Virus record (IMG/VR): IMGVR_UViG_3300021475_000011
Coordinates: 1 to 64,000 of that record
Direction: 5' to 3' (one strand)
Length of the DNA: 64,000 nt
Source of the DNA: a virus
Shown here: positions 12,345 through 24,840 of the stretch, one piece after another
How the letters are laid out: the number at the start of each line of letters is the position of its first letter
How positions within the stretch are numbered: the first letter of the stretch is position 1
Position numbers and translations under genes: made by a program
The notes under the pieces: model-generated
Database searches by the model: none
What the model was told of the DNA's origin: nothing
What the model saw: the letters and a program-made list of their open reading frames with translations, nothing else

Positions 12345-12350
12345 GGGTAC

Positions 12351-12402
12351 AGCATCGCAACCTCGCGGGGGATTGTCAAGGCGGGTGACACCCTACTGGA
12401 CG
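12351..12402 (-). promoter_or_regulatory. promoter A with upstream CGTCCAG box
   Basis: Minus strand: CGTCCAG (12396-12402), 16 bases, TTGACA (12374-12379), 17-bp spacer, GATGCT (12351-12356), six bases to the ATG at 12344. The transcript is probably leaderless. Operator O4 includes the minus-35 hexamer. Confidence 0.7.
12374..12390. promoter_or_regulatory. palindromic operator O4
   Basis: TGTCA-AGGCGGG-TGACA, a perfect match to the consensus. It covers the minus-35 hexamer of promoter A, so a bound protein would block RNA polymerase. Confidence 0.7.
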
Positions 12403-12442
12403 GATGATCTACCGGGCGCCCGACACGCTGGCCGGGCGCCCC

Positions 12443-12467
12443 GGTCAAATCTGACCGGCGCCGGTCA
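12443..12467 (-). terminator. dyad cluster at the 3' end of the 3D-domain gene
   Basis: A perfect 16-base palindrome TGACCGGCGCCGGTCA (12452-12467) overlaps the stop codon. A second dyad GGTCA/TGACC (12443-12456) is nested beside it, with two GGGCGCC direct copies further on. Probable termination zone before promoter A; no U-tract. Confidence 0.4.
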
Positions 12468-12854
12468 GCGGCGCATCACCGTGAAGCCCCTGCGCTGCCT
12501 GCCGTACTCGTCGCAGGCGGCTTCGCTCGGGTTGTAGATGTCCAGTTCGGACCCTGACCCGATGTGATCCTCGACCTGATAGACCGACCGCCCGAACGCC
12601 GGACGATCGAGCCTGATCCACGCGCCGAGCGGCAGGAACCCCGGCAGCACAGCCACGATGCCGGGCCTCGTCTGCTCGCCGCTCGCCGTGGTCCCCGACT
12701 GCGCATAGCAGGTGGATTCCACGGTGTAGTGCTGAGCTGCCTGGTGATGATGGTGATGGTGCGCGCCGGCAGCGTGCGCAGGGGTGAAGGCCGCGATCAG
12801 CGCGGCGAATAGAAGTCGGACGGTGCCGCTCCTTTCCTCGGTTCGCCGCACCAC
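12465..12854 (-). CDS. secreted 3D-domain (double-psi barrel) protein
   Basis: 129 residues if it starts at GTG 12854; the exact start is uncertain because the best ribosome site (AAAGGAG) lies just downstream. A signal-like segment RLLFAALIAAFTPAHAAGA is followed by six histidines, then a 3D-type barrel (YAQSGTTASGEQTRPGIVAV, PLGAWIRLD, YQVEDHIGSGSELDIY). 3D domains occur in peptidoglycan-active lytic enzymes. The two Asp/Glu positions EDH and LDIY are retained. Probably exported and wall-acting. Confidence 0.75.
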   Translation of the reverse strand: MVRRTEERSGTVRLLFAALIAAFTPAHAAGAHHHHHHQAAQHYTVESTCYAQSGTTASGEQTRPGIVAVLPGFLPLGAWIRLDRPAFGRSVYQVEDHIGSGSELDIYNPSEAACDEYGRQRRGFTVMRR

Positions 12855-12872
12855 GAGGGCGCGGCCTGACTA

Positions 12873-12897
12873 CCCGCCCGGCGTGCTCACGGGCGGG
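12873..12897 (-). terminator. GC-rich hairpin downstream of the 12.9-13.7 kb gene
   Basis: Perfect 8-bp arms CCCGCCCG/CGGGCGGG with a nine-base loop, 36 bases beyond the stop at 12933. No U-tract follows. Confidence 0.45.
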
Positions 12898-12932
12898 CGC
12901 GTGCAGGGAATACGGCCCTGCTCACGATTTGG

Positions 12933-13694
12933 TCAGGCGACGATGGCAGCCTCGCCGGACGCGCTCAGCTCGTAGTCGTTGTGCTCGGTCAGCACAGCGA
13001 GGCCACGACGGATGAGCAGGTCCACGATCGCTTTCGCTTCCGTCGCGTCGTAGCTCGTGCCGTTCAGGCCGCTAAGCGCCTTCTGGAACTGATCGAGGTC
13101 GCAGCCAGGCTCCGCGCCGATGATCCGCAACGCGCCCTGCTGAAGCTCCGTCAGCGGCTCCGGGTCGTCATCCCCACCACCTGCCGCCGCTGGCGCTGCC
13201 GCGGCCGGCTGCGTGGCTGCTGGTGGCTCAGCGGGCGGCGTCTCGCCCTTCGCCGCTTTGGGTGCGCGCGTGCGCCGCGCGCGAGTGCCGGTGCTCGTCT
13301 CGACCTCCACGCTGTCGATCCCCTCGACGCCAGCGAGCGCGGCGTCGGCCAGCGCGTCCACGGTGCTCTGCTCCGAGAGCACGGCGTCGAGCGAGTCGGG
13401 GTGCGGCACGTCATGGAAGACGCTCGTGTCCTTCGCCGCGCGCCTGATCCGGCCGCCCGCTTCGAGCTTCGAGCCGCGCATGATGGTGTTGATCGCCAAG
13501 CCCTGCACTTCCTTCTCCTTGAAGCCAGCGCTGTCGATCACAGCCACGACCGTTATCTCGATCCGGTCGCCGAGGTTGAACTGCGAGAGCATGTCGGGGT
13601 GCATCCCGAGCGCGCCGCCTAGCTTCAGCTCCGCGTCGTTGGACTCCCAATCGTCAGGGACCGGGAGTAGGGACATCTGCTGCTGCCGCGCCAT
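12933..13694 (-). CDS. phage protein with C-terminal winged-helix-like region
   Basis: 253 residues from ATG 13694, which is preceded by an AAGGAGG ribosome site. The N-terminal half has strands (DRIEITVVAVIDSAGFKEKE). An Ala/Pro linker and a C-terminal helical domain follow (ELQQGALRIIGAEPGCDLDQ, then AIVDLLIRRGLAVLTEHN) that looks like a winged helix. No family assigned. It overlaps the upstream gene by 41 nt. Confidence 0.65.
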   Translation of the reverse strand: MARQQQMSLLPVPDDWESNDAELKLGGALGMHPDMLSQFNLGDRIEITVVAVIDSAGFKEKEVQGLAINTIMRGSKLEAGGRIRRAAKDTSVFHDVPHPDSLDAVLSEQSTVDALADAALAGVEGIDSVEVETSTGTRARRTRAPKAAKGETPPAEPPAATQPAAAAPAAAGGGDDDPEPLTELQQGALRIIGAEPGCDLDQFQKALSGLNGTSYDATEAKAIVDLLIRRGLAVLTEHNDYELSASGEAAIVA

Positions 13695-13992
13695 CACTTC
13701 CTCCTTGCTCGTCGTCGTCGGCTTCGGCGTAACCGATGCCCTGGAAAGTCCAGCCATCCTCGAAGTGCATGGCGCTGATGGCTGGCACTACGTCGCCCGC
13801 GTCGGGCGATGCTGCGGGTGCAGGCACGAGGATCGTCCCCCAGCGCGGGTCGCTGTCAGCGGCGCCGCCTTGGAAGTCGCCGAGCGGGCGCACCGCGCCG
13901 ACGACGGGCAGCGTGTACTTCCGGCGCTCGTCGCCGTCGCCCTTCGTGTAGAGCGCGACAAACCCGATCGGGAAGGGGAACGCCCAGCTCAC
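13654..13992 (-). CDS. small protein, unknown function
   Basis: 112 residues from a GTG overlapping the preceding stop (GTGA). Beta-rich N-terminus (VALYTKGDGDERRKYTLPVV), acidic Gly/Asp-rich tail. Its last 41 nt lie inside the next gene's 5' end. No family recognised. Confidence 0.6.
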   Translation of the reverse strand: MSWAFPFPIGFVALYTKGDGDERRKYTLPVVGAVRPLGDFQGGAADSDPRWGTILVPAPAASPDAGDVVPAISAMHFEDGWTFQGIGYAEADDDEQGGSDGAAAADVPTPGP

Positions 13993-14579
13993 GAGCTGGC
14001 GCCCTCCGCTGCTGCACGCTCGGCGCGGCGGCGGGCGGCTGCCTGCTGGCGCGTCTCGGTCTGTGCGACATCGGGCGGCACGCTGGCCGCGGGCGCGCTG
14101 CCGGAATCGTCGGTGCCGCCGTCAGCATCCCCGGCAGGATCACCGGCAGGCGCCTCGCCGGCGGCTGCCGCGATGGCGTCACGGCTGGCCTGCTCCTGAT
14201 CGGCCGCGCGCTGCTCCTCAGCGAGCCGGCGCGTCTCGCGCTCGGCCTGCTCGCGCTCGCCCGCCTCGATGCGCTCTTGCCGCCGGCGCTCGGCGTCGGC
14301 CGCACGCGCGTCGGCCGGGTTCTCGTTCTCGCCCACCGGCTTCGTCGTGCCAGGCGGACGGCCAGCGTCGCGCCCGCGCGCGCCGTGAACGCGCTCCTGC
14401 GCGATGTTGCCAGCGTCGTCGGGCTCAGGCTCCCACTTCCCGAGGCCCGGCACGAACACGACCATGCCGCCCGCGCGCACGCTCAGGAACCCCCGCACGA
14501 TCGCGCCCTGCTCGTTGCGCATCAGCCAGTCGCCCGTCTCCGGGTCGAGGCCCGTCAGCTCACCCATCTTGCTCGGCAT
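13989..14579 (-). CDS. coiled-coil protein, unknown function
   Basis: 196 residues from ATG 14579 (GGAAGG ribosome site). An N-terminal small beta domain (GELTGLDPETGDWLMRNEQG) is followed by an Arg/Glu/Ala coiled coil and an Ala/Gly/Pro tail. An alternative ATG at 14567 overlaps the preceding stop by 8 nt. It sits beside the probable small terminase gene. Confidence 0.6.
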   Translation of the reverse strand: MPSKMGELTGLDPETGDWLMRNEQGAIVRGFLSVRAGGMVVFVPGLGKWEPEPDDAGNIAQERVHGARGRDAGRPPGTTKPVGENENPADARAADAERRRQERIEAGEREQAERETRRLAEEQRAADQEQASRDAIAAAAGEAPAGDPAGDADGGTDDSGSAPAASVPPDVAQTETRQQAAARRRAERAAAEGASS

Positions 14580-15120
14580 CGCTACCGCCTTCCGTCGTCG
14601 TAGGTTCGGGATCGCCGCTCTGATCGTCGGATGCTGCAAGCCCAGCTAGATAGCCCTGGAACTCCGAAGCCAAGTCCTCGCCGTGCGCCTCGTCGAACAT
14701 CGGGTCGCCGTCGCTCGTGGCGACATGCTCCGTCGGCGCGCCCCTGCTCAGCCGCTCCGTCTTCACGCCCAGCTCGAGCAGCCGCACCACGTCGCCCGGC
14801 TTCAAGCTCGCCGGGTCGATCCGGCGCAGCGCATCGTGCGCGAGCGCGACGACCTCCTGCCCGAGCCGCGCGTGCCGCAGGATCATCTCCACCTGCGCTT
14901 CCGCGTTGGCCGCCAACCGGATGCGATCGACCTCCCGGTCGTAGGCACGAGCTCGCAGCGTCCACTCGTTCGAGGACGCCATGCGCTCGGTCCACGACCG
15001 CGACCTGCCGATGACGTTGGCGACCTTCTTCAGCGAGCGGGAAAGGCCCATTTCCCGGTACACAAGGAACGCCTCGAAGGCGCGGCCGTTCTCGTTGTCG
15101 AGCTGCTCCCAAACCTCCAC
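14560..15120 (-). CDS. putative terminase small subunit
   Basis: 186 residues. A helical DNA-binding N-terminus (AFLVYREMGLSRSLKKVANV, then GRSRSWTERMASSNEWTLRA) matches a common phage pattern of a helix-turn-helix followed by W-x-x-R-A-x-A-Y-D, usually annotated as small terminase. A coiled-coil middle and acidic C-terminus follow. It is 11 kb from terL, so the assignment rests on sequence pattern alone. It could instead be another HTH packaging or regulatory protein. Confidence 0.55.
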   Translation of the reverse strand: MEVWEQLDNENGRAFEAFLVYREMGLSRSLKKVANVIGRSRSWTERMASSNEWTLRARAYDREVDRIRLAANAEAQVEMILRHARLGQEVVALAHDALRRIDPASLKPGDVVRLLELGVKTERLSRGAPTEHVATSDGDPMFDEAHGEDLASEFQGYLAGLAASDDQSGDPEPTTTEGGSDAEQDG

Positions 15121-15123
15121 CGC

Positions 15124-15423
15124 TCACGCCGCCGCCCACGCCTTGTCCACGTAGAACCACTCGCCGGCGCCACCTTCGGACGAGCTGATCGGGCCGACGG
15201 GGAACTCGCCCATCTTCTCTTCGGTGACGGGGTTGGAGAGCTCGACCCACAGCTCGCCGTTGCGGCGCAGCGTGTCGTCCACGCGCAGGACGTGGCGGTG
15301 GCCGCCGTCGTGGATGCGGACGCCCGGCTTCAGCCTCGACAGGTCATCGAGGACACGGACAGGGCGCGGGTTGCGGTGGCGATCCTGAACGCGGGACGTG
15401 CGCGGCGGTGGTCGGCGAGGCAT
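15124..15423 (-). CDS. small beta-rich protein, unknown function
   Basis: 99 residues with a basic N-terminus. The strands LKPGVRIHDGGHRHVLRVDD and LWVELSNPVTEEKMGEF suggest a small barrel, possibly nucleic-acid binding. It ends three bases before the GTG of the probable small terminase gene. Confidence 0.6.
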   Translation of the reverse strand: MPRRPPPRTSRVQDRHRNPRPVRVLDDLSRLKPGVRIHDGGHRHVLRVDDTLRRNGELWVELSNPVTEEKMGEFPVGPISSSEGGAGEWFYVDKAWAAA

Positions 15424-15441
15424 CCGGGCCAGCGTACAAGA

Positions 15442-15960
15442 CTATGCAGACGCAGCAGCGGCTCGCGGGTATTCTCCCGGCCGCAAAGTGCGAAGACCTG
15501 CTGCTGAGAGCGCGAGGTTCCATGTGATGTGCGCGCGCTGCACCGTCGAGGTCACAGGCCATTCGCTCGGGTCCTTCACGAGCTTCAGCGCGGCGAGCGT
15601 CTTGCGGGTCCGCCACTGACTCGCGCGCGGCGGCTCGCCCTGTTCAGCCGTCCAGCGGATCAGCGCGTTGAGGATCGCGTCGGGGGTCCACACTCGCCCG
15701 GCCTGCGCGAACAGACAAGCGCAGTTGGCACAGCGAAGCGGTGAACGTCCACGCCCGAGGTTGCCATCCGTCGGGCTGCCACAGTCCACGCACGAACCCG
15801 CGTAGCTGGCCTTCCGGGCTCGGAGCTTGTCGAGCGTCGGGTCGCTGAAGTAGCTCGACACGGTGCCCGGCCTGACGCGCAGAATGGCCGCAATCTCACC
15901 GTTCGTCTTCCCCTTGGCGCGGAGCGCGCGCGCCAGCTCCACTCGATCGGCCCTCGGCAT
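15442..15960 (-). CDS. HTH, zinc and HARE-repeat protein
   Basis: 172 residues from ATG 15960. N-terminal helix-turn-helix (KTNGEIAAILRVRPGTVSSY), then a zinc ribbon (CVDCGSPTDG, CANCACLF). The C-terminal segment WTPDAILNALIRWTAEQGEP to WNLALSAAGL follows the homing-endonuclease-associated repeat pattern. No HNH or GIY nuclease core is visible, so it may be a regulator or the DNA-binding part of a lost endonuclease. A minus-10-like TACGCT lies six bases before the ATG, suggesting leaderless expression. Confidence 0.7.
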   Translation of the reverse strand: MPRADRVELARALRAKGKTNGEIAAILRVRPGTVSSYFSDPTLDKLRARKASYAGSCVDCGSPTDGNLGRGRSPLRCANCACLFAQAGRVWTPDAILNALIRWTAEQGEPPRASQWRTRKTLAALKLVKDPSEWPVTSTVQRAHITWNLALSAAGLRTLRPGEYPRAAAASA

Positions 15961-16228
15961 CGGCCGAGCGTACACGCGGACGCCGACGGCGACGCCGCGC
16001 GCCGCGCCTGATCTGCTCCTCCGTGACGACGACAAGTTCGCGCAGGGCCTCGGGCGCATCGGTGCCCATACCCGTGAGCGGGATCGGCAGGCGGTCGGCC
16101 ATGATCTGCGCGACCACGATCCCGTCCTCGCGCACGCTCAGCTCGACGCGCGCCGGCGAGAGGCCGTGCATTTCGCTGAGCAGCTTCACGCAGTACGCCA
16201 GGTCGTCGTTGATCGTCTCGACCGCCAT
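15896..16228 (-). CDS. small protein, unknown function
   Basis: 110 residues from the ATG at 16228 (TGATG coupling). The N-terminal part (DDLAYCVKLLSEMHGLSPAR, then a LSVREDGIVVAQIMAD strand pair) is compact. The C-terminus is very basic. Its 3' end overlaps the HARE gene by 65 nt and contains that gene's putative promoter. Confidence 0.6.
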   Translation of the reverse strand: MAVETINDDLAYCVKLLSEMHGLSPARVELSVREDGIVVAQIMADRLPIPLTGMGTDAPEALRELVVVTEEQIRRGARRRRRRPRVRSADAEGRSSGAGARAPRQGEDER

Positions 16229-16437
16229 CAGCTCGCCTCGTCGGGGTCGTAATCCTCTGGCGGCTCGTCGCGGCCAATCTCCCAGCACGGTTCGCACAGC
16301 TCCCCGAACTCGGCGGTCAGGCGCTTGCAGCGCACGCACAGCAGCGGCGGCTCGGTGGCTGTCCCGCGCTCGTCCTCAAGGCGCGCGAGCAGCCCCCGAT
16401 AGTGCGTGTGCGCGGCGTCCATATCGACGGCGCTCAC
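16228..16437 (-). CDS. small zinc-knuckle protein
   Basis: 69 residues from a GTG overlapping the preceding stop. CVRC and CEPC pairs 13 residues apart form a four-cysteine zinc site; the tail is acidic. Function unknown. Confidence 0.6.
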   Translation of the reverse strand: MSAVDMDAAHTHYRGLLARLEDERGTATEPPLLCVRCKRLTAEFGELCEPCWEIGRDEPPEDYDPDEAS

Positions 16438-17024
16438 GAGCGAACACGAACCGACATCGTGGCGGCCATCTGCGCCTCGCTGCCGTCCTCGAAGACCACG
16501 CGGACCCTGCGGTGGATGCGCTCGGTCGAGGCGATCGTGCGCCACTCGCCGTCGTGGCGAATCGTCAGGCCCGAGTACAGCTCGTTGGCGTCCATCGGCT
16601 TCACGGGCGGCTTCGTCACGACCTCATCCCACGGGTACTGACGGGCGAGCGAGGCGACGTGCAGCGCTTCGCGGTCGTACTCGTCGGCCAGCTCGGCAGG
16701 CGCCGGCGGGATGCAGCCACGGTGGCGAGCATCCACGCGCAGGACTGCCTCCGTGCGGACCTGCTCGTCGGTCGGCTGCTCGCGGCCGGCGCTCAAGAGC
16801 CAGCCCTGCCCGTCGTAGGTGGCGCCACAGCCGGCGCAGGTGTGGGTCTGCTCGCCGCCGAACGGCACGTCCTCGATCGTCGCGCCGCATGTGCAGTCGT
16901 AGCTTCCGTTGGCGCGCTGACCCTGCGGGACGTTGCGGTCGCGGTGCCAGGCGAGCTTCTTCACTTCGATGGTGACGGGAGCGGTGGCGCTCATGGTGTG
17001 GTCCTCTCGGGTGGAAGTGGTCAT
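16434..17024 (-). CDS. zinc-ribbon protein of the MTTS promoter family
   Basis: 196 residues if read from ATG 17024. A second in-frame ATG at 16994 has a GAGAGG ribosome site and may also be used. A four-cysteine zinc ribbon (CTCGATIEDV... CAGCGATYDG) lies near residue 45-75. A C-terminal strand-rich part (LTIRHDGEWRTIASTERIHR) follows. It is controlled by promoter C and operator O5. No family recognised. Confidence 0.65.
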   Translation of the reverse strand: MTTSTREDHTMSATAPVTIEVKKLAWHRDRNVPQGQRANGSYDCTCGATIEDVPFGGEQTHTCAGCGATYDGQGWLLSAGREQPTDEQVRTEAVLRVDARHRGCIPPAPAELADEYDREALHVASLARQYPWDEVVTKPPVKPMDANELYSGLTIRHDGEWRTIASTERIHRRVRVVFEDGSEAQMAATMSVRVRS

Positions 17025-17040
17025 GTCAACTATGGTGACA
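17024..17040. promoter_or_regulatory. palindromic operator O5
   Basis: TGTCA-ACTATGG-TGACA, a perfect match. It overlaps the ATG at 17024 and the minus-10 region of promoter C. Confidence 0.7.
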
Positions 17041-17072
17041 CTCGCGGGGTCAGGCTTCAAGCGCTCTGGACG
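17032..17072 (-). promoter_or_regulatory. promoter C with upstream CGTCCAG box
   Basis: Minus strand: CGTCCAG (17066-17072), five bases, TTGAAG (17055-17060), 17-bp spacer, CACCAT (17032-17037), seven bases to ATG 17024. Same architecture as promoter D. Confidence 0.55.
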
Positions 17073-17089
17073 AACGTATGAGAACAGCA

Positions 17090-17117
17090 GCGGGGCGCCT
17101 GACCTACAGCGCCCCGC
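17090..17117 (-). terminator. hairpin after the 17.1-17.5 kb gene
   Basis: Perfect 9-bp stem GCGGGGCGC/GCGCCCCGC with a ten-base loop between the stop at 17146 and promoter C. The minus strand then reads TGCTGTTCTC, weakly U-rich. Confidence 0.55.
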
Positions 17118-17145
17118 CGTGTTTCCCTCTCCCCCCGTCCCCCGA

Positions 17146-17463
17146 TCAAGCGCGAGCGAACCTGCGGTCAGGAGGCTTCGGGCCGACCTCGCTCTCGATG
17201 TAGGCGATGACGCGGAGCGTGGAGGGCACCGGCTCGGCGGGCGCCTCGATCACGTCCGCTGGCAGGACCCATGTGTCGAACCAACCGGCGACGAGGAACC
17301 GGCGAATGTGGACGCGCTTGCTCACATGGCCGAATCGAATCTCGTCTTCGGTGGGATCGGCGACACGCAGCAGCCGCACCGTCTCCAAGTCGTCGCCACT
17401 GCCGCTCAGGCGCACGCGCACGTAGGCTCCGTCGGGCAGAGCTTCCAGCGTCTTCGATCGCAT
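17146..17463 (-). CDS. small beta-rich protein, unknown function
   Basis: 105 residues, many strands (AYVRVRLSGSGDDLETVRLL). The ATG overlaps the preceding stop (TGATG), so it is coupled to the MTTS gene upstream. The hairpin at 17090-17117 follows. No family recognised. Confidence 0.6.
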   Translation of the reverse strand: MRSKTLEALPDGAYVRVRLSGSGDDLETVRLLRVADPTEDEIRFGHVSKRVHIRRFLVAGWFDTWVLPADVIEAPAEPVPSTLRVIAYIESEVGPKPPDRRFARA

Positions 17464-17765
17464 CAGCGGTTCTCGATCGAGCGGAGCTCGCCGCCGGCGT
17501 CGGTGAAGCGGCCAAGGCGTCGGGCCGACTCGCCGTTGCCGCGTAGCAGGTTGCCGGGGAGCGCGTGCAGGATGGTCGGGTCGTCGCGGTGGCGCATCAG
17601 CAGGAACTCGGCGCCGCGCTTGCCCGTGAGCAGGTAGGGCAGCTCGGCGGCTGTGCTCTCGCCCTCGCGGCTGGTCACGGTGTACTCACGCGGGCTGAGC
17701 GTGTGCGAGTCCTTCACGACGACGATGCTGGTAGCTGCTGTGTGGTGATCCGTGGAAGTAGTCAT
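17463..17765 (-). CDS. small MTTS-family protein, unknown function
   Basis: 100 residues from ATG 17765, starting MTTSTDHHTAATSIVVVKDS. No other suitable start exists, which supports leaderless initiation at this ATG. It has an alternating strand/loop sequence with no known domain. Promoter D and operator O6 lie directly upstream. Confidence 0.6.
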   Translation of the reverse strand: MTTSTDHHTAATSIVVVKDSHTLSPREYTVTSREGESTAAELPYLLTGKRGAEFLLMRHRDDPTILHALPGNLLRGNGESARRLGRFTDAGGELRSIENR

Positions 17766-17781
17766 GTCAAGCATGGTGACA
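17765..17781. promoter_or_regulatory. palindromic operator O6
   Basis: TGTCA-AGCATGG-TGACA, a perfect match. It overlaps the ATG at 17765 and the minus-10 region of promoter D. Confidence 0.7.
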
Positions 17782-17813
17782 CGCTCGACGCCCAACCACA
17801 ACCCCTCTGGACG
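17773..17813 (-). promoter_or_regulatory. promoter D with upstream CGTCCAG box
   Basis: Minus strand: CGTCCAG (17807-17813), five bases, TTGTGG (17796-17801), 17-bp spacer, CACCAT (17773-17778), seven bases to ATG 17765. Confidence 0.55.
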
Positions 17814-17819
17814 GACGTA

Positions 17820-18164
17820 CTACTCGGGCAGCTCGGGGACCTCAACCGCATAGATGTCGTCGATGGGCAGGAACATCAGCGGCTCGCCATCGACCTCGAG
17901 CACCATCCCACCGTGCTCGTACCTGACGATCTGGCCGGGCACCACGTCGAGCGGCAACTGTTCGCCGTGCTTGCCCTTGCGGGAGCCGACGGCCAGCACG
18001 ATCGCGCGGCGTTCCTCTTCGCGGACGGTCGCCGGCAGGTGCAGGCCGCTCGCGCGCTGCGGCGGCGGCACGGGCTTGACGATGATCCGCGGGCCCATGA
18101 CCTCGATCACGGCGCTGCCCGTCGGGCGGTCGGTGCTGGCGACGGCTGTGGTGTGCTCGCTCAT
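17820..18164 (-). CDS. groES-like: GroES-like co-chaperonin
   Basis: 114 residues, close to the usual size of about 97 plus a short N-terminal extension. The fold pattern is clear: IIVKPVPPPQRASGLHLPAT is the first strand plus mobile loop. It is followed by AIVLAVGSRKGK, PLDVVPGQIVRYEHGGMVLE and a C-terminal DDIYAVE. Phage GroES homologues (T4 gp31, RB49 CocO) retarget host GroEL for capsid folding. No GroEL partner is present, so host GroEL would be used. The ATG overlaps the upstream stop (ATGA). Confidence 0.85.
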   Translation of the reverse strand: MSEHTTAVASTDRPTGSAVIEVMGPRIIVKPVPPPQRASGLHLPATVREEERRAIVLAVGSRKGKHGEQLPLDVVPGQIVRYEHGGMVLEVDGEPLMFLPIDDIYAVEVPELPE

Positions 18165-18277
18165 ACGATCGCGCTCCACAGGTGAACACAGCCGGCGATG
18201 GTCGCCGTGACGGCCAGCGCCGCTATGCAGCCCACCACGACGTAGGCGAGCGCGACGCCGGCCTTCTCGCTGGTCAC
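18161..18277 (-). CDS. 38-residue single-span membrane protein
   Basis: Starts at a GTG overlapping the preceding stop (GTGA) and ends on the GroES ATG (ATGA). Almost the whole chain is one hydrophobic helix (VALAYVVVGCIAALAVTATI). It could be a small holin-like or inner-membrane peptide; no family assigned. Confidence 0.55.
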   Translation of the reverse strand: MTSEKAGVALAYVVVGCIAALAVTATIAGCVHLWSAIV

Positions 18278-18627
18278 GAGCGAGCGGCTTCCTCTGCCGC
18301 CTCCTTGGCGTCTTCGTGCGCGCGCTTCGCCGACTTCAGCACCTTCGGGTCCTCCAAGTCGGCGTCCGTCAGGATGCCGTGGCACCGTGCCAGTCCGCGA
18401 GCGACGCGCATCTTTGCGTCCTCGATCGCGGTCTTGGCAAGGGCATACTCGCGGTTGCGAGCCGCGCTCAGGATCGCTCCCGAGTTGGAGAACTCGTCGA
18501 GCTTCAAGCGAAGACCCTGCTGCGTCAGCAGTTCGGTCTTGTCGAAGGCCAGCGTAAGAAGCTGGTGGACGGTGAGCGTGCCCGCCGGGCGCCGCTCGAT
18601 CGGCTGGACCTGCTCGTCGTCGTTCAT
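18274..18627 (-). CDS. helical protein, unknown function
   Basis: 117 residues from ATG 18627, preceded by GGAGGG at good spacing. All-helical, charged C-terminal coiled coil (KSAKRAHEDAKEAAEEAARS). First gene of the GroES unit; the 118-bp gap upstream carries two inverted repeats and a TATGCT box. Confidence 0.65.
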   Translation of the reverse strand: MNDDEQVQPIERRPAGTLTVHQLLTLAFDKTELLTQQGLRLKLDEFSNSGAILSAARNREYALAKTAIEDAKMRVARGLARCHGILTDADLEDPKVLKSAKRAHEDAKEAAEEAARS

Positions 18628-18738: not shown

Positions 18739-18745
18739 GGGAAAC

Positions 18746-19177
18746 TCAGAACGGCACGCCGTCGTCTTCGGGCGCAGGCGCCGGCGGCTCGGGATCGGCG
18801 AGCAGCCGGTCGATGGTCTTGCCGCCGCTCAGGCGCTTCACGGCCGCCGCGATCGTGCCCGCGCAGCGCACCGCGGCCACCTGCTCGTCCGTGGTCATCA
18901 GCGGCAGCAGGTCGAGCCGGTGGCCGTCGTAGGCGGCGTGGCAGGTGTCGGTGCTCGTCGCCGGGCCGCACAGCTCGACCACATGGTCAGGGTTCACCCA
19001 CAGGATCGTCTCGCTGACCTCCGGGCGCGGCTCGTCGTGGACGCGGCCGATGGTGTGCGCCGCCTCAAGAGAGCGGCCGAGCTCGGCGAGCTGGAACACG
19101 TCGAGGCCGCACGCGCGACACCGGCCCTTCTCGTCCACCTTCGCGCGTGCCGCTGACCAATCCCGCTGCACGCTCAC
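18746..19177 (-). CDS. HNH-type endonuclease-like protein
   Basis: 143 residues. A zinc pair CRACG, the E-A-A-H-T-I-G-R segment, a VNPDHVVELCGP strand and a final CHAAYD match the beta-beta-alpha metal fold of HNH proteins. The core H-to-C spacing fits. The GTG start overlaps the preceding stop. Phage HNH proteins often assist packaging or act as homing nucleases; next to recombination genes the role is open. Confidence 0.7.
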   Translation of the reverse strand: MSVQRDWSAARAKVDEKGRCRACGLDVFQLAELGRSLEAAHTIGRVHDEPRPEVSETILWVNPDHVVELCGPATSTDTCHAAYDGHRLDLLPLMTTDEQVAAVRCAGTIAAAVKRLSGGKTIDRLLADPEPPAPAPEDDGVPF

Positions 19178-19656
19178 GGCGTCAGTTCAGCCTCGCGCTT
19201 CTGCGCCGAGAGGATCGACTGCCGCAGGCTGGCAGCCCGCTCCTTGCTCTTGATCCACTTCTCAAGCGCTCGAATCTCGGCTTCCAGCTCGACGTACTCA
19301 ACCCACATTTTCGGGTTCTGCTCCTTCGCCCGGATGCGGGCCTCGGCCTCCATGATCCGCGACGGCCTGCCCTTCAGCGACGCGGGCAGCTTGTTCTCGG
19401 GGTCGGCTGCGTGCTCGAGCATTTCCCGCTCGATCGCGCACATGGCCTCGTCCACGACCGCCTCCCATTGCAGCTTCAGCCCGAGCTCGCCGTCGGTGAC
19501 GCCCTCGAACTTCTTGATCGCCTGCCCCAGCCGCGCGGACGCCGAGTCGAGGCCACGCGCGTCGAGCGCCAGGTCCGTCATCAGCGACATCGGGTCGATC
19601 CTGATGTCCACCGTGCGCGCCGGCGGTGGCTGCTGCGAGTCGTCGAGCGTGGTCAT
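19174..19656 (-). CDS. helical recombination-operon protein
   Basis: 160 residues from ATG 19656 (ATGA overlap with the exonuclease). Almost entirely helical with a coiled coil (MWVEYVELEAEIRALEKWIK). Its coupling to the exonuclease suggests an accessory role in recombination; sequence family not recognised. Confidence 0.65.
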   Translation of the reverse strand: MTTLDDSQQPPPARTVDIRIDPMSLMTDLALDARGLDSASARLGQAIKKFEGVTDGELGLKLQWEAVVDEAMCAIEREMLEHAADPENKLPASLKGRPSRIMEAEARIRAKEQNPKMWVEYVELEAEIRALEKWIKSKERAASLRQSILSAQKREAELTP

Positions 19657-20435
19657 ACGAACGACCTGCGCTGCTGCTTGCGGGCGAGCGCCACGCGGTC
19701 GAGCCGTTCGTGCAGCGCGGCGACCGACAGGAAGTCCTCTAGTTCGCCGACGCCGCGCTCGACTTCGCCGGGGGTGCCGTCGGCGTGCAGGTGCAGCAGC
19801 TCCGTGTGGCAGACGGCGAAGCCGGTCAGCTCGAGGTAGGCGGCGGCGTAGGCGGCGACCTGAATGTGGGCGCTGTCGTAGATCGCCTTGCTCGTCTTCG
19901 CGTCGCCGAGCACGAGGCCACCACAGCCACAGGTGCAGCTCCGCAGATAGTCGAACGTGCCGGCGTAGCGGTGCGCCAGGCTGATGATCGGGACCTCCGT
20001 CGAATGGAACACGGGGCGCGTGTCGAGGACCCAACCGGCAAGGCTCTGATGGAAAGGCCGCTCGACCTCGGGCAGCTCGTGGAACGGTGGCGGCCCGTCG
20101 TCGCCGGCGTACATCGTCAGCGCCTCGTGGACGTTCGTGCCGCGCAGCGCGGCTTCGTCGCGCAGGTCGATCGGCCGGACCTTCTTCTCGGCCAGGTACA
20201 TGACCGCCTCCTCGGCGGTGGAGAAGAACACGCCGTCGTTGTTCATGGCGACCATCGCCTCGACGGTGCGCGTGAAGGCCCACCACGTCAGGGCCTCGGA
20301 CTTGTCGATGACGCCCAATATCTTCGTGACGCTCGGCAGCGTGAAGCTCTCGACGCCGGCGGCTGTGTGGACGGTGTAAGCGTGCTTGACGGGCTCGAAG
20401 TCCACCACCACGTCGCCGTAGCGCACAGTCTTCAC
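19653..20435 (-). CDS. PD-(D/E)XK exonuclease, Cas4/RecB-like
   Basis: 260 residues. The nuclease core is visible: RGTNVHEALT (catalytic His), STEVPIISLAHRYAGTFD (Asp), LGDAKTSKAIYDSAHIQVAA (D-x-K and the QxxxY motif). It acts on DNA ends, probably making ssDNA for the Rad52-type annealing protein encoded 2 kb upstream. The GTG start overlaps the stop of the small frameshifted gene. Confidence 0.82.
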   Translation of the reverse strand: MKTVRYGDVVVDFEPVKHAYTVHTAAGVESFTLPSVTKILGVIDKSEALTWWAFTRTVEAMVAMNNDGVFFSTAEEAVMYLAEKKVRPIDLRDEAALRGTNVHEALTMYAGDDGPPPFHELPEVERPFHQSLAGWVLDTRPVFHSTEVPIISLAHRYAGTFDYLRSCTCGCGGLVLGDAKTSKAIYDSAHIQVAAYAAAYLELTGFAVCHTELLHLHADGTPGEVERGVGELEDFLSVAALHERLDRVALARKQQRRSFV

Positions 20436-20682
20436 AGGACGACACCGACCACGCGCAGCACAGTACCGGGCGCGAAGATCGTGGGCTCCGTCACCACTTC
20501 ACCTGACAGTGGCTCGGGCGCGGGCAGGCCGCCGATGCTGTTGCAGCCGCAAGCCTCGACGGCGTGCTCGTCCACGATCATCTTCCAGACCTCCTCGGCC
20601 CACTCGGATCGGCCAGGTGCCCCCCCCCCGACGGAACATGGAAGGTCCCGCAGGTGGTGATGATGCGTGCGTAGACCTTCAC
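20432..20682 (-). pseudogene. small gene broken at a G10 tract
   Basis: A GTG at 20682 overlaps the DUF5131 stop, and a TGA overlaps the exonuclease start. However, the 251-nt span is not divisible by three. The 5' part reads VKVYARIITTCGTFHVPSGG. After the G-run the frame that continues to the expected stop is one base over (PGRSEWAEEVWKMIVDEHAV... to VLRVVGVVL). Restoring an 11-G run gives an intact 83-residue protein. It could be a sequencing error, true phase variation or transcriptional slippage. Confidence 0.65.
20620..20629. repeat. C10 homopolymer tract causing a frame break
   Basis: Ten C on the plus strand. Unlike the other tracts in this window, the coupled small gene is out of frame at this length and in frame at 11 or 8. 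Confidence 0.75.
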
Positions 20683-21641
20683 GACGCCACGCCCGCGCGC
20701 TCGGGCATGTCGCGCACGCGCAGGTCAGGCGGAAGGTCGTCGAGCGCCGTGCCCGCGCGCGCGCCGCCGAGCTGCTTGACGAACAGCGCGGTCGCGCCGT
20801 CCGTGTCCTGCCAGCACTCGTCGCGGCAGTAGTCGCGCAGCGCGCGCACCCACTCCAACTTCATCGGCCTGTGGCCGGCGCCGCTCTCGCCGCCGACGAT
20901 CAGCCAGTCGATCAGCTCGAGGTCCAGCCCGCGCCCCTGGTAGCCGTCCTCCCACGGCCGCCACGCGAAGACCGGCGCGTCACCCACCGGGTACGTCTCG
21001 TGCTCGGCGTCGGTCATGTATTCGGCGTCGGGCAGCAGCGGGCCAAGCAGCGGCTCGGCGCTGATGAACCTGATGTGCGCCGGCGTTTCGCGGAGCAGGT
21101 CGGCGCGGTGGACAAAGCGGCGGTTCTCGATCGACGTGCCGAGCCAGATATTCGTGAGCTGGTCGAAGCCGTCGTTCACCACGTCGGCGATGATGAAAGC
21201 GTTGGGGATGCCGCGCCCGAGCTCGTGGACCTGCTCCATGACCTCCCGTGCGAACGGCCAGCTTTTCAGCAGGTCGCGCATCCTCTCGGGGCGCTTCGTG
21301 AGCACCTGAAACGTGTGCTGGTGAGCGAGCGCCATCACGGCGAAGACCTTGGCTATGTAGTCGTCGGGGATCAGCTCGTGGAACAGGTCGCTCATGCTGT
21401 TGACGAACACCATCCGGGGCGCGTCGAAGGGCTTGGCTTTGCGCAGCGGCTCGGTCAGCTTGTGAGGCTTCAGCAGCACGTTCCGGGCGGCGTTGGCTGG
21501 CGTCCACGGCGCGGGGGTCTGTCCGTAGCGCAGGCTCAGCGTCTCGGCGTAGCAGTTGGCGCAGCCGGGCGACACCTTCGAGCAGCCATGCACGGGGTTC
21601 CAACTGACCTCCGTCCACTCGATCTTCGTCTCGTTCGCCAT
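20679..21641 (-). CDS. DUF5131 (phage Gp37/Gp68-like) protein
   Basis: 320 residues. The N-terminal IEWTEVSWNPVHGCSKVSPG is followed by CANCYAE, a three-cysteine signature of DUF5131. Later segments (VFVNSMSDLFHELIPDDYIA, FQVLTKRPERM, WLIVGGESGAGHRPM) also match. The family resembles radical-SAM folds and is common in phages; its reaction is unknown. Coupled by TGATG to the upstream zinc gene. Confidence 0.88.
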   Translation of the reverse strand: MANETKIEWTEVSWNPVHGCSKVSPGCANCYAETLSLRYGQTPAPWTPANAARNVLLKPHKLTEPLRKAKPFDAPRMVFVNSMSDLFHELIPDDYIAKVFAVMALAHQHTFQVLTKRPERMRDLLKSWPFAREVMEQVHELGRGIPNAFIIADVVNDGFDQLTNIWLGTSIENRRFVHRADLLRETPAHIRFISAEPLLGPLLPDAEYMTDAEHETYPVGDAPVFAWRPWEDGYQGRGLDLELIDWLIVGGESGAGHRPMKLEWVRALRDYCRDECWQDTDGATALFVKQLGGARAGTALDDLPPDLRVRDMPERAGVAS

Positions 21642-21790
21642 CAGCTCACGACCTCGTGACCTTCCTCGTCGGCGCAGCCGGCGTGGACCCACTCGTCGTC
21701 CACGTTCACGATCAGCTCGCCCTCGACGATCTGATCCTCGCAGATGCCGCACCGTGTCGAGCGGGTCGCCTCGATCGCGTGGAGCTTCAC
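21641..21790 (-). CDS. 49-residue zinc-finger protein
   Basis: GTG at 21790 overlaps the preceding stop, and its TGA overlaps the DUF5131 ATG (TGATG). CGIC, then VEGELIVNVDDEWVHAGC, gives a small treble-clef-like or PARP-like finger with Cys/His ligands. Too short for length-filtered prediction. Function unknown. Confidence 0.6.
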   Translation of the reverse strand: MKLHAIEATRSTRCGICEDQIVEGELIVNVDDEWVHAGCADEEGHEVVS

Positions 21791-22245
21791 GAGAACGCCG
21801 TGCCCTCGGTCAGCAGCTTCACGCGCTCGTCAACGGCCTGCTCAGCCTTGCGCTCGCGGATCGCGCTCTGCCGATTCGGGCAGGCGGGCAGACCGTCCGG
21901 CCCGTTCTGGCGCGGCAGCAGCACGCCGCACATCGGGCAGATCGTGGCGTCGATGCAGCGAACCTCGCCCTCGAAGTTGACGGGCACGTAGGCGCCGCAC
22001 AGCGACCACTCGATCGTGAGCTCGACGCCGCGCCGGTGGAGCGCCAACCGCTGCGCCTCCTGCTGCTCGAGCGCGGTCACGCGCAGCCGCTCAAGCTCGG
22101 CGCGATCCTCGGGTGACATCGCGGCGAGCTGGCGGTCGGCCTCAGCCTGCGCGGCCTGCTCCGCCGCGCGCTCGCGGGCGCGCTCTGCGGCTGCCTCGCG
22201 TTCGGCGGCGTTCGGGGCTCGCTGGCGCTTGCGTTTCTTGCCCAT
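21787..22245 (-). CDS. basic coiled-coil zinc protein
   Basis: 152 residues from the ATG at 22245 (TGATG coupling to the Rad52-like gene). The N-terminus is very basic (MGKKRKRQRAPNAAEREAAA), then a coiled coil. A C-terminal ATICPMCGVLLPRQNG...CPNR zinc site follows. Possibly nucleic-acid binding. Confidence 0.65.
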   Translation of the reverse strand: MGKKRKRQRAPNAAEREAAAERARERAAEQAAQAEADRQLAAMSPEDRAELERLRVTALEQQEAQRLALHRRGVELTIEWSLCGAYVPVNFEGEVRCIDATICPMCGVLLPRQNGPDGLPACPNRQSAIRERKAEQAVDERVKLLTEGTAFS

Positions 22246-23234
22246 CAGGTCCGCTCGGCGAAGAACGCGGCCAGCTCGGCGATCTGCTCGCCGGTGGCTT
22301 CTTGGATGTCGGAGAGGCCCATCTGTGTCAGCTTGGCAACACATTCGGCGCGAGTGCAGGACGAGTCGGCGTAGGCGACGCGCAGCGCCACGATCGGGTC
22401 CTGCGCCTCGGCAAGCGCGGCGTCCGCCTCCGCGTCGTCGCCGGCGGGCGCGCCCTGCGCTTCGGCGTCGGCGTGCGCGGCCTCCTGCTCAGCGACCGCG
22501 CCATCGGTGTCGGTGTCGCCGCTCGGCTGCTGCTGCTCGTCCTCGGCGGGATCGGGCGGGACCTCGGGCAGCTCCGCCTCGATGTCGCCCTGCGCCTCCG
22601 TCACGTCGCCGTGGTCGAGCGGCTGACCGAAGCGCTCCACGACGGTCGCCATGCGCAGCCAGCCGCCATAGCGCTGCCTCAGCTTCACTTCGGTCTTCGA
22701 CGGCAGATACCACTTCCCGCCGACGAACTGAAGTTCGGTCGCCTCGACGTACAGGCGCGGCGCGAAGTAGAGAAACGCGCCGATGCCGTACTTGACACAC
22801 GCGCGCTTGAAGGCGTCACTGTGAACACCCTTGAGCGCCATGTCGCCGTTCTTGCCAAGCTCCTCCGTGCCGACGTAGCTCACGTCCGAGCGTTTGCGGT
22901 CGAAGACCTCGAGCACGCAGTTCACGCCGAAGCCCTTGGCGCCGGCGGGATACAGCGGGCCGTAGCCGTCATCCCACGCGCCCGGCGTGACGACGTTCAG
23001 GCGCTCGGCCGCGGTGCGCGCCTCGATGTAGACGACGACGAGGCCCTTCCCGAAGCTCGCCTGCTGACCCTCGCCCTTCTTCTTCGGGTTGACCTGAATC
23101 TTGAAGCTCACGGCCTCCGGTGTGAACGGGCGGCGGAACAGCGGCATCGCCTCGTCGAGCGACTTGGCCGGGTGAATGACCTCGCCCTCGGGCTCTGCCG
23201 GCTCCTGCTCAGCCGGTGGTGCTGCGTCGGCCAT
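22245..23234 (-). CDS. Rad52-family single-strand annealing protein
   Basis: 329 residues. The segment ALKGVHSDAFKRACVKYGIG followed by AFLYFAP is the hallmark of phage Rad52-type recombinases, with the preceding GYGPLYPAGAKGFGVNCVLE and PFTPEAVSFKIQV strands. A long acidic Ala/Glu/Gln linker leads to a small C-terminal helical domain (CVAKLTQMGLSDIQEATGEQ). It should anneal complementary strands during phage recombination with the exonuclease and RusA. Confidence 0.82.
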   Translation of the reverse strand: MADAAPPAEQEPAEPEGEVIHPAKSLDEAMPLFRRPFTPEAVSFKIQVNPKKKGEGQQASFGKGLVVVYIEARTAAERLNVVTPGAWDDGYGPLYPAGAKGFGVNCVLEVFDRKRSDVSYVGTEELGKNGDMALKGVHSDAFKRACVKYGIGAFLYFAPRLYVEATELQFVGGKWYLPSKTEVKLRQRYGGWLRMATVVERFGQPLDHGDVTEAQGDIEAELPEVPPDPAEDEQQQPSGDTDTDGAVAEQEAAHADAEAQGAPAGDDAEADAALAEAQDPIVALRVAYADSSCTRAECVAKLTQMGLSDIQEATGEQIAELAAFFAERT

Positions 23235-23458
23235 CAGTGACGATCGCCGGCGGGGAAGACCTCGAAGCTGCTCCTGCACGTCAGCACGTCGTCGCGGTCC
23301 ATGATCGACTTGTTGATGGCGTCCTCGATCGCGGGCACGTCGCCGATGCTGTCAGCCTGCACGCGGACGGTGAACGTGATCGGGTAGCCGTTGGCCTCCC
23401 AATCCTCCTGCTCGGCGGTGCGCGGGTCCTGCATCGGTGCGGTGCTCGGCTCATCCAT
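23234..23458 (-). CDS. small acidic protein, unknown function
   Basis: 74 residues from ATG 23458, overlapping the preceding stop by 8 nt. One alpha/beta unit (YPITFTVRVQADSIGDVPAI). Coupled by TGATG to the Rad52-like gene. Confidence 0.6.
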   Translation of the reverse strand: MDEPSTAPMQDPRTAEQEDWEANGYPITFTVRVQADSIGDVPAIEDAINKSIMDRDDVLTCRSSFEVFPAGDRH

Positions 23459-23765
23459 CGGGCGCTGCCTCCTGTAGATCGGTGGTGGTCGGGACGGTCC
23501 CGAAGGGGATGTGAAAGAAGCGCTCAAGCATGACGGCGAGCAGGCCGATCGTTTCGAGCAGCGGCAGCTCGCAGCGCGCGATGTGCCGGGCCTCGTCGCG
23601 GCCGTAGTCGAGGCCGCGCTGCCACGCCTTTGCAAAGCGCTCGGGGTCCATGTGCAGCAGCGCGTTCAGCGGATTGGCGCCGCGCTTCTCGCACTCCGCG
23701 CAGCCATCGCGCAAGAGCTGGTCGGGGTGAAAGCCGGGCAGCTCCTCGTGGTAGTCGTGGGCCAC
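23451..23765 (-). CDS. first gene of the recombination unit, unknown function
   Basis: 104 residues from the GTG at 23765, chosen because operator O7 abuts it. Helical with a CAECEKRG pair and a hydrophobic helix (LPLLETIGLLAVMLERFF). No family recognised. Confidence 0.6.
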   Translation of the reverse strand: MAHDYHEELPGFHPDQLLRDGCAECEKRGANPLNALLHMDPERFAKAWQRGLDYGRDEARHIARCELPLLETIGLLAVMLERFFHIPFGTVPTTTDLQEAAPDG

Positions 23766-23781
23766 GTCAAGCAGCCTGACA
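23765..23781. promoter_or_regulatory. palindromic operator O7
   Basis: CGTCA-AGCAGCC-TGACA; one mismatch. It overlaps the GTG at 23765 and lies between a strong terminator and the recombination genes. Confidence 0.6.
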
Positions 23782-23797
23782 GGTCGAAGAAAAGGCT

Positions 23798-23836
23798 GCC
23801 CGCCCGGCGACCACTTCCACGCGATGCCGGGCGGGC
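23798..23836 (-). terminator. rho-independent terminator
   Basis: Perfect 11-bp stem GCCCGCCCGGC/GCCGGGCGGGC with a 17-base loop. On the minus strand it is followed by CAGCCTTTTCTTC. It ends the unit of the gene at 23871-24752. Confidence 0.75.
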
Positions 23837-23870
23837 CTCGGCCCACTCACCGAAGCTGAGCAGGACAAGA

Positions 23871-24752
23871 TCATGGCGCGACCGCCGGGGTGACATCAAC
23901 GGCGACGATCAGCGACTCGGGGCCCGCGGCCAGCGCCGACAGGACCGTCTCTCGCCACTCGCGCTCGCTCGCGCCCTCCTCCAACCACTCGCCGCCGGCG
24001 CACAGCGCGAACGGCAGGCCGACACGGCGGCGTTCGATCAGGTCGCGGTAGAGCGTCGAGGTCATCACGTTGGGATCGCCCGAGATTTCTGCGGGGTCGG
24101 CGTTCAGGTCGCCGTACTCGTCGCGCAGGAAGAACGCCGTGAACTGGCCGCCGATCGTCCAGCTCTCCCACTTCCCGGCCGGGTTGCGCCTGGTCGTGTA
24201 GACGCCCGTCCCGCCGCACAGGCCGCAGTCGTCGCGCAGCTCCGGGCTCACGTCGATGCCGCACTCGGGGTCCGGCTTGCCGTAGGCGTCGTGGGTGCGC
24301 GCCAGCTCGTCGATCGCCTCAGCCTTCGCGGCGTTGAAGTTGTCCCACACGTCGGCGAGCTGGTCGTCAGCAGCACGGATCGCCTCCGCGTCCGGCGGCG
24401 GCCACAGGCCGAGCTCGCGGAGCTGTTCGACGCTGCCCTCGTGCTGAGCGATGCGCTTCACCGTCTGTTCGGCGTGCGTGTTGGTGGGATCGACCGACCA
24501 CGCCAGCAGATGAACAGCGCGCGTCTTCGCGCGGACCTCCTCGGCGACCTCGCGGCTGAACTCGTCGCGGCCGTTCACGATGTCGGTTGCCCACTGGACG
24601 GCGGCGCGGCCAACACACGAGCAAGGCGACTCCCACGGATCGACGAGGCGCGCGTTGTCGAACGGCGCGAGCGCGTCGTCCACCATCCGAGCGATCCCCG
24701 AGTGCTCGATCACGTCGCCGCTGACGACGACCGCTGCAAGAAGGTGACGCAC
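23871..24752 (-). CDS. zinc-containing phage protein, unknown function
   Basis: 293 residues from a GTG three bases after the stop of an 8-codon leader ORF. The N-terminal part is helical. In the middle, DDCGLCGGTGVYTTRRNPAG followed by KWESWTIGGQF gives a DnaJ-like CxxC-GG zinc segment. No enzyme family recognised. Single-gene unit between promoter B and the terminator at 23798-23836. Confidence 0.65.
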   Translation of the reverse strand: MRHLLAAVVVSGDVIEHSGIARMVDDALAPFDNARLVDPWESPCSCVGRAAVQWATDIVNGRDEFSREVAEEVRAKTRAVHLLAWSVDPTNTHAEQTVKRIAQHEGSVEQLRELGLWPPPDAEAIRAADDQLADVWDNFNAAKAEAIDELARTHDAYGKPDPECGIDVSPELRDDCGLCGGTGVYTTRRNPAGKWESWTIGGQFTAFFLRDEYGDLNADPAEISGDPNVMTSTLYRDLIERRRVGLPFALCAGGEWLEEGASEREWRETVLSALAAGPESLIVAVDVTPAVAP

Positions 24753-24755
24753 GGC

Positions 24756-24782
24756 TCAGCGGCGAGTAGTGGAAGTGGTCAT
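24756..24782 (-). CDS. 8-codon MTTSTTRR leader ORF
   Basis: ATG-led ORF reading MTTSTTRR then TGA, seven bases downstream of the promoter B minus-10. The first codons match those of three other genes behind the same promoter type. The next gene's GTG follows the stop after three bases, so translation may be reinitiated. Either a relic of a copied promoter-plus-start cassette or a functional leader. Confidence 0.5.
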   Translation of the reverse strand: MTTSTTRR

Positions 24783-24789
24783 GCCCTGC

Positions 24790-24840
24790 ATCCTGCCAGC
24801 CGATCAGACGGGTGTCAAGGGACTTGTCGCGGACTGGACG
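24790..24840 (-). promoter_or_regulatory. promoter B with upstream CGTCCAG box
   Basis: Minus strand: CGTCCAG (24834-24840), 15 bases, TTGACA (24813-24818), 17-bp spacer, CAGGAT (24790-24795), seven bases to ATG 24782. It is embedded in the 3' end of the upstream replication gene. Confidence 0.65.

What the first reader, a model, noticed from the sequence alone, without database searches (positions are those of the whole stretch)
12351..24840. Four copies of a promoter-plus-start cassette beginning MTTS
Genes starting at 12344, 17024, 17765 and the mini-ORF at 24782 share an upstream CGTCCAG box, a 17-bp minus-35/minus-10 spacing, six or seven bases from minus-10 to ATG, and first codons ATG-ACC/T-ACT-TCC. 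The downstream proteins are unrelated. This implies that a regulatory cassette including the start codon was copied in front of different genes.
Basis: seen in the sequence. Interest (0 to 1): 0.72.

Follow-up and report, generated by a model that had tools for sequence, protein, structure and literature searches.

The report
Phage leaderless starts with antisense hairpin
Four unrelated phage genes share the same promoter parts and first codons; those codons exactly match, in reverse, the loop of an RNA hairpin at the end of one of the four transcripts, which suggests that the phage tunes these genes with a small antisense RNA.

Summary
The four sites exist as described (minus strand; ATG at 12344, 17024, 17765, 24782). 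Each has CGTCCAG, a TTG-type -35, 17 bp, a weak -10 and 6-7 nt to ATG-ACY-ACT-TCC-A. No other start in the 67.5 kb contig has this combination. (1) The CGTCCAG box lies at -48 or -58, about one helical turn apart. (2) The sites belong to a larger operator family, TGTCA-N7-TGACA: 5 perfect and 13 one-mismatch copies (shuffles 0.025 and 0.93). Eight of these abut start codons, mostly without Shine-Dalgarno sequences. One more copy lies in 5.4 kb of the same phage outside the contig. (3) The conserved codons (+3..+14) are complementary, allowing G-U, to the loop of a terminator-like hairpin at 23798-23836, just behind the gene that follows mini-ORF 24782 (expected chance matches 0.006-0.02). Wholesale copying of a cassette is convincing only for 17024/17765; elsewhere only short elements are shared. 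The best model is an operator-controlled, probably leaderless regulon whose 5' ends are targets of a transcript-end antisense RNA. Operator family: strong. Leaderless initiation: probable. Antisense RNA: plausible, untested, and without comparative support, because no relative carrying this region was found.

The parts
12332..12345 (-). Site A conserved start block C-ATGACCACTTCCA; first codons of a 333-aa protein with a signal-peptide-like N-terminus and a weak Ig-like match (11343-12344)
12351..12379 (-). Site A putative promoter TTGACA-17-GATGCT, 6 nt before the ATG
12374..12390 (-). Site A operator dyad TGTCACCCGCCTTGACA (perfect arms; covers the -35)
12396..12402 (-). Site A box CGTCCAG (-58 to -52)
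12414..12441 (-). Hairpin just upstream of the A box, probably ends the preceding transcript
17012..17025 (-). Site B conserved start block; gene 16434-17024. An in-frame ATG 30 nt downstream (coordinate 16994) follows a GAGAGGA Shine-Dalgarno-like stretch
17024..17040 (-). Site B operator dyad TGTCACCATAGTTGACA; its last base is the A of the ATG
17032..17060 (-). Site B putative promoter TTGAAG-17-CACCAT
17066..17072 (-). Site B box CGTCCAG (-48 to -42)
17090..17117 (-). Hairpin just upstream of the B box, probable end of the C operon
17753..17766 (-). Site C conserved start block (codon 2 is ACT); gene 17463-17765
17765..17781 (-). Site C operator dyad TGTCACCATGCTTGACA, overlaps the A of the ATG
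17773..17801 (-). Site C putative promoter TTGTGG-17-CACCAT
17807..17813 (-). Site C box CGTCCAG (-48 to -42)
24756..24782 (-). Site D mini-ORF MTTSTTRR-stop with the conserved start block; its stop is 3 nt before the GTG of gene 23871-24752
24790..24818 (-). Site D putative promoter TTGACA-17-CAGGAT
24813..24829 (-). Site D degenerate dyad CGACAAGTCCCTTGACA (2 mismatches)
24834..24840 (-). Site D box CGTCCAG (-58 to -52)
23871..24752 (-). Gene behind mini-ORF D (293 aa, one weak PHROG match of unknown function)
23798..23836 (-). Terminator-like hairpin, 11-bp perfect outer stem followed by AGCCUUUUCUU, about 35 nt behind the D gene
23809..23820 (-). Loop sequence GUGGAAGUGGUC, complementary to +3..+14 of the four transcripts (A and C with one G-U each)
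23765..23781 (-). Operator dyad TGTCAGGCTGCTTGACG abutting the GTG start of gene 23451-23765
1890..1906 (-). Operator dyad abutting a start codon
260..276 (-). Operator dyad abutting a GTG start (86 codons, open to near the contig edge)
6137..6153 (-). Operator dyad TGTAAGCGAGGTTGACA upstream of the 6103/6107 starts
58759..58775 (-). Perfect operator dyad 23 nt upstream of the 58735 start
59598..59614 (-). Operator dyad 22 nt upstream of the 59575 start
60460..60476 (-). Perfect operator dyad 1 nt before the 60458 start
63302..63318 (-). Operator dyad directly before the 63301 start
9690..10145 (-). XRE/HTH_3 protein, N-terminus resembling P22 C2 repressor; candidate reader of the dyad (binding not shown)

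Best explanation
The four sites are the start points of probably leaderless transcripts in an operator-controlled regulon of a high-GC tailed phage. Transcription would begin at or within a base or two of the ATG (inferred from 6-7 nt between -10 and ATG and the lack of a Shine-Dalgarno sequence at B and C and at most of the other dyad-abutting starts). A DNA-binding protein, possibly the phage XRE protein at 9690-10145, binds the 17-bp dyad TGTCA-N7-TGACA that covers the -35 (A, D) or the -10 and start (B, C). A second factor reads CGTCCAG at helix-phased distances. The conserved first codons GACYACTTCCAY are an RNA target. The transcript that starts at D ends about 35 nt behind its gene in a hairpin whose loop, GUGGAAGUGGUC, pairs over 12-13 nt with +2/+3..+14 of mRNAs A, B, C and D. 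This transcript end, free or processed into a small RNA, would cover the start regions and block ribosome entry, so that production of the D transcript damps its own translation and that of A, B and C. Shown: elements, geometry, operator enrichment, complementarity. Inferred: leaderless starts, protein binding, termination, RNA pairing, repression.
For: Unique co-occurrence of box, -35, -10 and start block at four sites. Dyad: 5 perfect and 13 one-mismatch copies against 0.025 and 0.93 in 200 dinucleotide shuffles; no other spacer from 2 to 15 gives a perfect copy; it is the top dyad in an unbiased 5-mer arm scan; one further copy before a gene start lies in 5.4 kb of new sequence from a near-identical contig. 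Eight dyads lie within 3 nt of a start codon. Mean duplex energy with the 16S tail is -1.8 kcal/mol for six dyad-abutting starts and -7.3 for 16 other genes. The loop contains the exact complement of GACCACTTCCAC: expected 0.006-0.02 in the record, none in 300 shuffles. Of 162 stem-loop entries tested, only this hairpin pairs 10 nt or more with any of 50 gene starts. The four sites are the best four of 3,871 ATG/GTG for pairing with the loop. Both deviations (C at +6, A at +14) are C to U and keep G-U pairs. The complementarity ends where conservation ends (+13/+14). The block is kept in D, where it encodes only an 8-aa peptide, so a protein-level reason is unlikely.
Against: No transcription data. 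A and D have SD-like energies of -6.8 and -5.5, so leaderless initiation is not shown for them. The -10 boxes are weak. No relative carrying this region was found, so there is no covariation test; the nearest relative with shared virion genes, G001, lacks both cassette and dyads. The U-tract begins 4 nt after the stem, and the standard terminator scan did not list the hairpin. The predicted fold leaves only GUGGAA and one further base single-stranded. With a longer loop including flanking GC-rich bases, the four sites are not the best targets. The GACCACTTCCAC copy also lies near a dyad, which would fit a DNA element. The match was noticed after the fact, not predicted.
Confidence: 0.5

Rival explanations
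1. Copied cassette: one promoter-operator-start unit was duplicated in front of different genes, and the shared codons are simply the end of the copied piece.
For: B and C share 49/75 upstream bases ungapped and identical box, dyad and start spacing. B has its own internal ATG with a Shine-Dalgarno-like GAGAGGA, and D a separate GTG behind a mini-ORF, as if the unit had been placed before genes with their own starts.
Against: A and D share only short elements with the others, and even with each other most spacer bases differ (30/75). The start block stays intact where the spacers have drifted to background, so copying alone does not explain why it is kept, nor the hairpin-loop match.
Confidence: 0.22
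2. DNA element: GACCACTTCCAC is a binding site of a transcription factor acting with the dyad and CGTCCAG; the copy at 23809-23820 is another such site.
For: The extra copy lies 27 bp from a dyad at 23765-23781, and in A and D the element lies 31-32 bp from theirs.
Against: In B and C the distance is 1 bp. The fifth copy is in the opposite orientation to the gene and sits in the loop of a strong hairpin. The other dyad sites lack it (best 2 or more mismatches).
Confidence: 0.15
3. Leaderless translation signal: the first codons ACC-ACT-TCC were selected because they help initiation on a 5'-terminal AUG.
For: Leaderless geometry and the lack of Shine-Dalgarno at B and C.
Against: The other dyad-abutting, probably leaderless starts of this phage (1890, 63301, 60458, 67043, 259, 23765) have unrelated first codons. 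It does not explain the hairpin-loop match.
Confidence: 0.08
4. Chance resemblance of unrelated sites.
For: CGTCCAG alone is hardly enriched, and TTG/nAnnnT hexamers are short.
Against: Four exact or near-exact 12-mers at starts, with the box at two fixed distances, and the dyad statistics.
Confidence: 0.02

Closest known systems
Start-associated sequences and extended SAS (SAS/ESAS) of cluster K mycobacteriophages (PMC3203893)
   Same: Short asymmetric element repeated at start codons of unrelated non-structural genes, one orientation, with an additional inverted repeat upstream of many copies; function unknown there.
   Different: SAS is GGGATAGGAGCCC, upstream of the ATG, with a Shine-Dalgarno core. 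Here the element starts at the ATG, has no Shine-Dalgarno, and the dyad has 5-bp arms and a fixed 7-bp gap. GGGATAGGAGCCC is absent (best 3 mismatches, below chance).
Phage repressor operator sets (Cro/CI-type dyads; cluster A stoperators), from general knowledge
   Same: Many copies of a 13-17 bp operator spread through the genome at promoters; an XRE protein resembling P22 C2 is encoded.
   Different: Different sequence; no exact or one-mismatch L5-type stoperator; binding of the XRE protein not shown; no integrase was noticed.
P1/P7 c4 antisense RNA and hok mRNA fold-back (fbi) element, from general knowledge
   Same: Antisense segment carried on the same transcript as one of its targets; pairing covers a translation start; 5'-3' complementarity within one mRNA.
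   Different: Here the antisense is in a terminator-like loop, the targets are probably leaderless AUGs, and four separate transcripts share the target.
Trans-acting sRNAs that mask translation starts, e.g. sRNA162 of Methanosarcina mazei (PMC3510493); phage sRNA 24B_1 (PMC4426718, abstract only)
   Same: A small RNA, in some cases cut from a longer transcript, acts on phage or cellular gene expression; sRNA162 covers a translation initiation region.
   Different: Those were studied by experiment; this one is predicted only, and its targets begin at the AUG.

Membership tests
Leaderless mRNA | Transcript 5' end at or within a few nt of the start codon | not testable with these tools
   Only geometry: -10 end 6-7 nt before ATG
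Leaderless mRNA | No Shine-Dalgarno sequence | tested here: inconclusive
   B -3.3 and C -2.0, other dyad-abutting starts mean -1.8, but A -6.8 and D -5.5 kcal/mol against -7.3 for ordinary genes
Cluster K SAS/ESAS | GGGATAGGAGCCC 3-7 nt upstream of starts | tested here: not met
   No match within 2 mismatches; 6 matches at 3 mismatches against 17 expected
Cluster A stoperators | Repeated GGTGGMTGTCAAG, asymmetric | tested here: not met
   No match with fewer than 2 mismatches. Matches at 2-3 mismatches exceed shuffles (62 against 28) but are mostly not at the dyads
Phage dyad operator set | Over-represented inverted repeat with fixed spacing at promoters/starts | tested here: met
Phage dyad operator set | Cognate DNA-binding protein encoded and shown to bind | not testable with these tools
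   XRE/HTH_3 candidate at 9690-10145; binding untested
Trans-acting antisense sRNA | Complementarity to several mRNA translation starts beyond chance | tested here: met
Trans-acting antisense sRNA | An RNA species exists and changes target expression | not testable with these tools
   Needs RNA-seq and reporters
Trans-acting antisense sRNA | Conserved or covarying pairing in relatives | not tested
   No relative with this region found; the near-identical contig G007 does not hold the cassette
Known Rfam family | Match above gathering score | tested here: not met
   No Rfam match in the window

The most novel reading that the evidence does not exclude
A phage-encoded RNA, taken from the terminator hairpin of one transcript, controls a set of leaderless mRNAs in trans by pairing with their 5'-terminal codons, its own transcript included; several genes have acquired identical first codons as the RNA's target site.
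Probability: 0.4. Interest if true: 0.8.

Novelty: new variant of a known kind. Interest (0 to 1): 0.56.

Why it matters
Leaderless mRNAs have no 5' untranslated region in which regulatory RNAs could bind. A phage that places an antisense target in the first codons of several genes would show how such mRNAs can be controlled together, and would explain identical protein N-termini by RNA-level selection. The dyad family also gives a directly testable regulon in a phage lineage whose early genes mostly match no known family.

Tried and rejected
Exact cassette search gave 9 hits in IMG/VR and 11 in 84,980 genomes. The hits have unrelated sequences around the pattern and no shared promoter geometry, and the genome hits mostly lie inside long open frames, so I treat them as coincidence. 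The dyad-plus-MTTS pattern has no IMG/VR match. Protein B and the D gene product have no relatives in INPHARED or IMG/VR, and the XRE protein none in IMG/VR. The PHROG 2045 protein brought in 80 distant loci, none with four or more dyads. The nearest relative by virion genes (L092 = G001, 30-48% identity) has neither dyad family nor cassette. The consensus promoter scan found nothing in 11-30 kb. Other probably leaderless starts show 10-12 nt complements elsewhere, but not in hairpin loops. One literature search found no paper describing a phage small RNA that acts on leaderless mRNAs; this covers open-licence papers only.
Full report
The window is bases 1-64000 of a 67,533-base virus record, 68% GC. 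It is a tailed phage with terminase, portal, protease and capsid genes and nearly all coding-like frames on the minus strand. Its host is not known. No close relative was found in INPHARED. In IMG/VR there is one near-identical contig, L109/G007 (99.99% over 22.6 kb), which does not hold the cassette, and a distant relative, L092/G001, sharing virion genes at about 30-48% identity.

Observation. The four sites are exactly as stated, on the minus strand. ATGACYACTTCC occurs four times in the whole record and only there. A scan that asks for the box, a TTG near -36 and nAnnnT near -12, but not for the codons, returns the same four starts and no others. The box lies at -58 (A, D) or -48 (B, C), a difference of 10 bp or about one helical turn, as expected if a protein bound there must face the polymerase in the same way (inference).

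Copying or selection. Upstream identity (75 bases, ungapped) is 49 for B/C, 30 for A/D and 17-27 for the other pairs; about 21 is expected from composition (my own arithmetic). B and C are therefore very likely duplicates. A and D share short elements in otherwise different spacers. The start block is intact in all four but for one synonymous change (ACC to ACT in C). In D it encodes only MTTSTTRR, whose stop is 3 nt before the GTG of the 293-aa gene. Selection on the protein is therefore unlikely to be the reason for conservation.

Operator family. The sites overlap a dyad TGTCA-N7-TGACA. The record holds 5 perfect and 13 one-mismatch copies against 0.025 and 0.93 in shuffles; other spacers give no perfect copy, and an unbiased arm scan puts this dyad first. 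A, B and C are perfect; D is degenerate. Eight copies lie within 3 nt of an ATG/GTG that opens a frame of 86 codons or more (260, 1890, 17024, 17765, 23765, 60460, 63302, 67047); five others lie 22-37 nt before a start. G007 adds 5.4 kb beyond the record's end, with one more copy before a gene start, a test on sequence not used to find the motif. Starts with an abutting dyad mostly lack Shine-Dalgarno sequences: mean -1.8 kcal/mol for six of them and -3.3 and -2.0 for B and C, against -7.3 for 16 other genes. A and D are closer to ordinary genes (-6.8, -5.5). The XRE protein at 9690-10145 (HTH_3, E = 1.9e-12; resembles P22 C2, E = 4e-5) is a candidate binder. It lies next to a methyltransferase gene and could instead be a controller protein of that gene.

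Antisense lead. Behind the gene that follows mini-ORF D there is a hairpin with an 11-bp perfect stem and a T-rich tail (23798-23836; region fold -41 kcal/mol, z = -3.8). It was the only hairpin found with a perfect 8-bp GC-rich stem and at least 5 T in 8 bases, although the standard scan with short loops did not list it. Its loop carries GUGGAAGUGGUC, the exact complement of GACCACUUCCAC, positions +3 to +14 of B and D. A and C differ at one position each, both C to U, and keep a G-U pair. The 12-mer is expected 0.006-0.02 times in the record (0 in 300 shuffles). No other hairpin pairs 10 nt or more with any of 50 gene starts. The frame upstream of GTG 23765 does not show coding-type GC periodicity, so the hairpin is probably non-coding and lies between the D gene and the next operator. 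The loop has six fully unpaired bases (GUGGAA) that could start pairing. Caution: when flanking GC-rich stem bases are included, other starts score as well as or better than the four, so the argument rests on the contiguous 12-nt match and not on total energy.

Mechanism. I take the most likely reading to be an operator-controlled set of probably leaderless transcripts whose first codons are the target of an RNA taken from the end of the D transcript. It would act on D itself (5'-3' within one molecule or between copies) and on A, B and C in trans. The steps from complementarity to repression are inferred. The main rivals are copying without further function, and a DNA element with the same sequence, supported by its nearness to a dyad.

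Known systems. Cluster K SAS/ESAS (PMC3203893, read) is the nearest described phenomenon but differs in sequence and position and is absent here. Cluster A stoperators are not present as such. P1 c4 and hok fold-back (general knowledge) are the nearest mechanistic analogues. No Rfam family matches, and one literature search gave no report of a phage small RNA acting on leaderless mRNAs.

Noticed in passing
G001 (L093-L097 joined, 87,221 bases), e.g. minus strand 16149, 10703, 2767, 31514: The distant relative carries its own repeated promoter/leader unit: GTTATACT 13 times, all in the direction of transcription, several followed by a shared leader with CCCGAAC and TACGAAAGG before different starts.
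   Followed up: partly
1890-1906, 63302-63318, 67047-67063 (record), L112:4332: The TGTAAACTC[GA]CCTGACA version of the dyad contains a good -10 (TAAACT); genes 1630-1890 and 63014-63301 both have VKL near their N-terminus, so this may be a second promoter-plus-start family.
   Followed up: partly
51041-51256 +: Cold-shock-like protein ([20 protein letters not shown]) on the plus strand, against the direction of nearly all other genes.
   Followed up: no
20679-21752 -: Protein of PHROG 2045 (GCANCYAE motif) with relatives in at least 136 IMG/VR stretches; DNA matches of 80-85% to Gordonia phage Twister6 and Microcystis phages over about 120-140 bases.
   Followed up: partly
12414-12441 and 17090-17117: Strong hairpins directly upstream of the A and B boxes, suggesting that each unit is insulated from the preceding transcript.
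   Followed up: partly
25954-25979: Short pentanucleotide repeat (CTTCC; GGAAG on the minus strand) inside the replication-initiator-like gene.
   Followed up: no
L112 (G007:1-8000): The near-identical contig G007 extends the phage by 5.4 kb beyond the end of the window's record, so the record is incomplete.
   Followed up: yes
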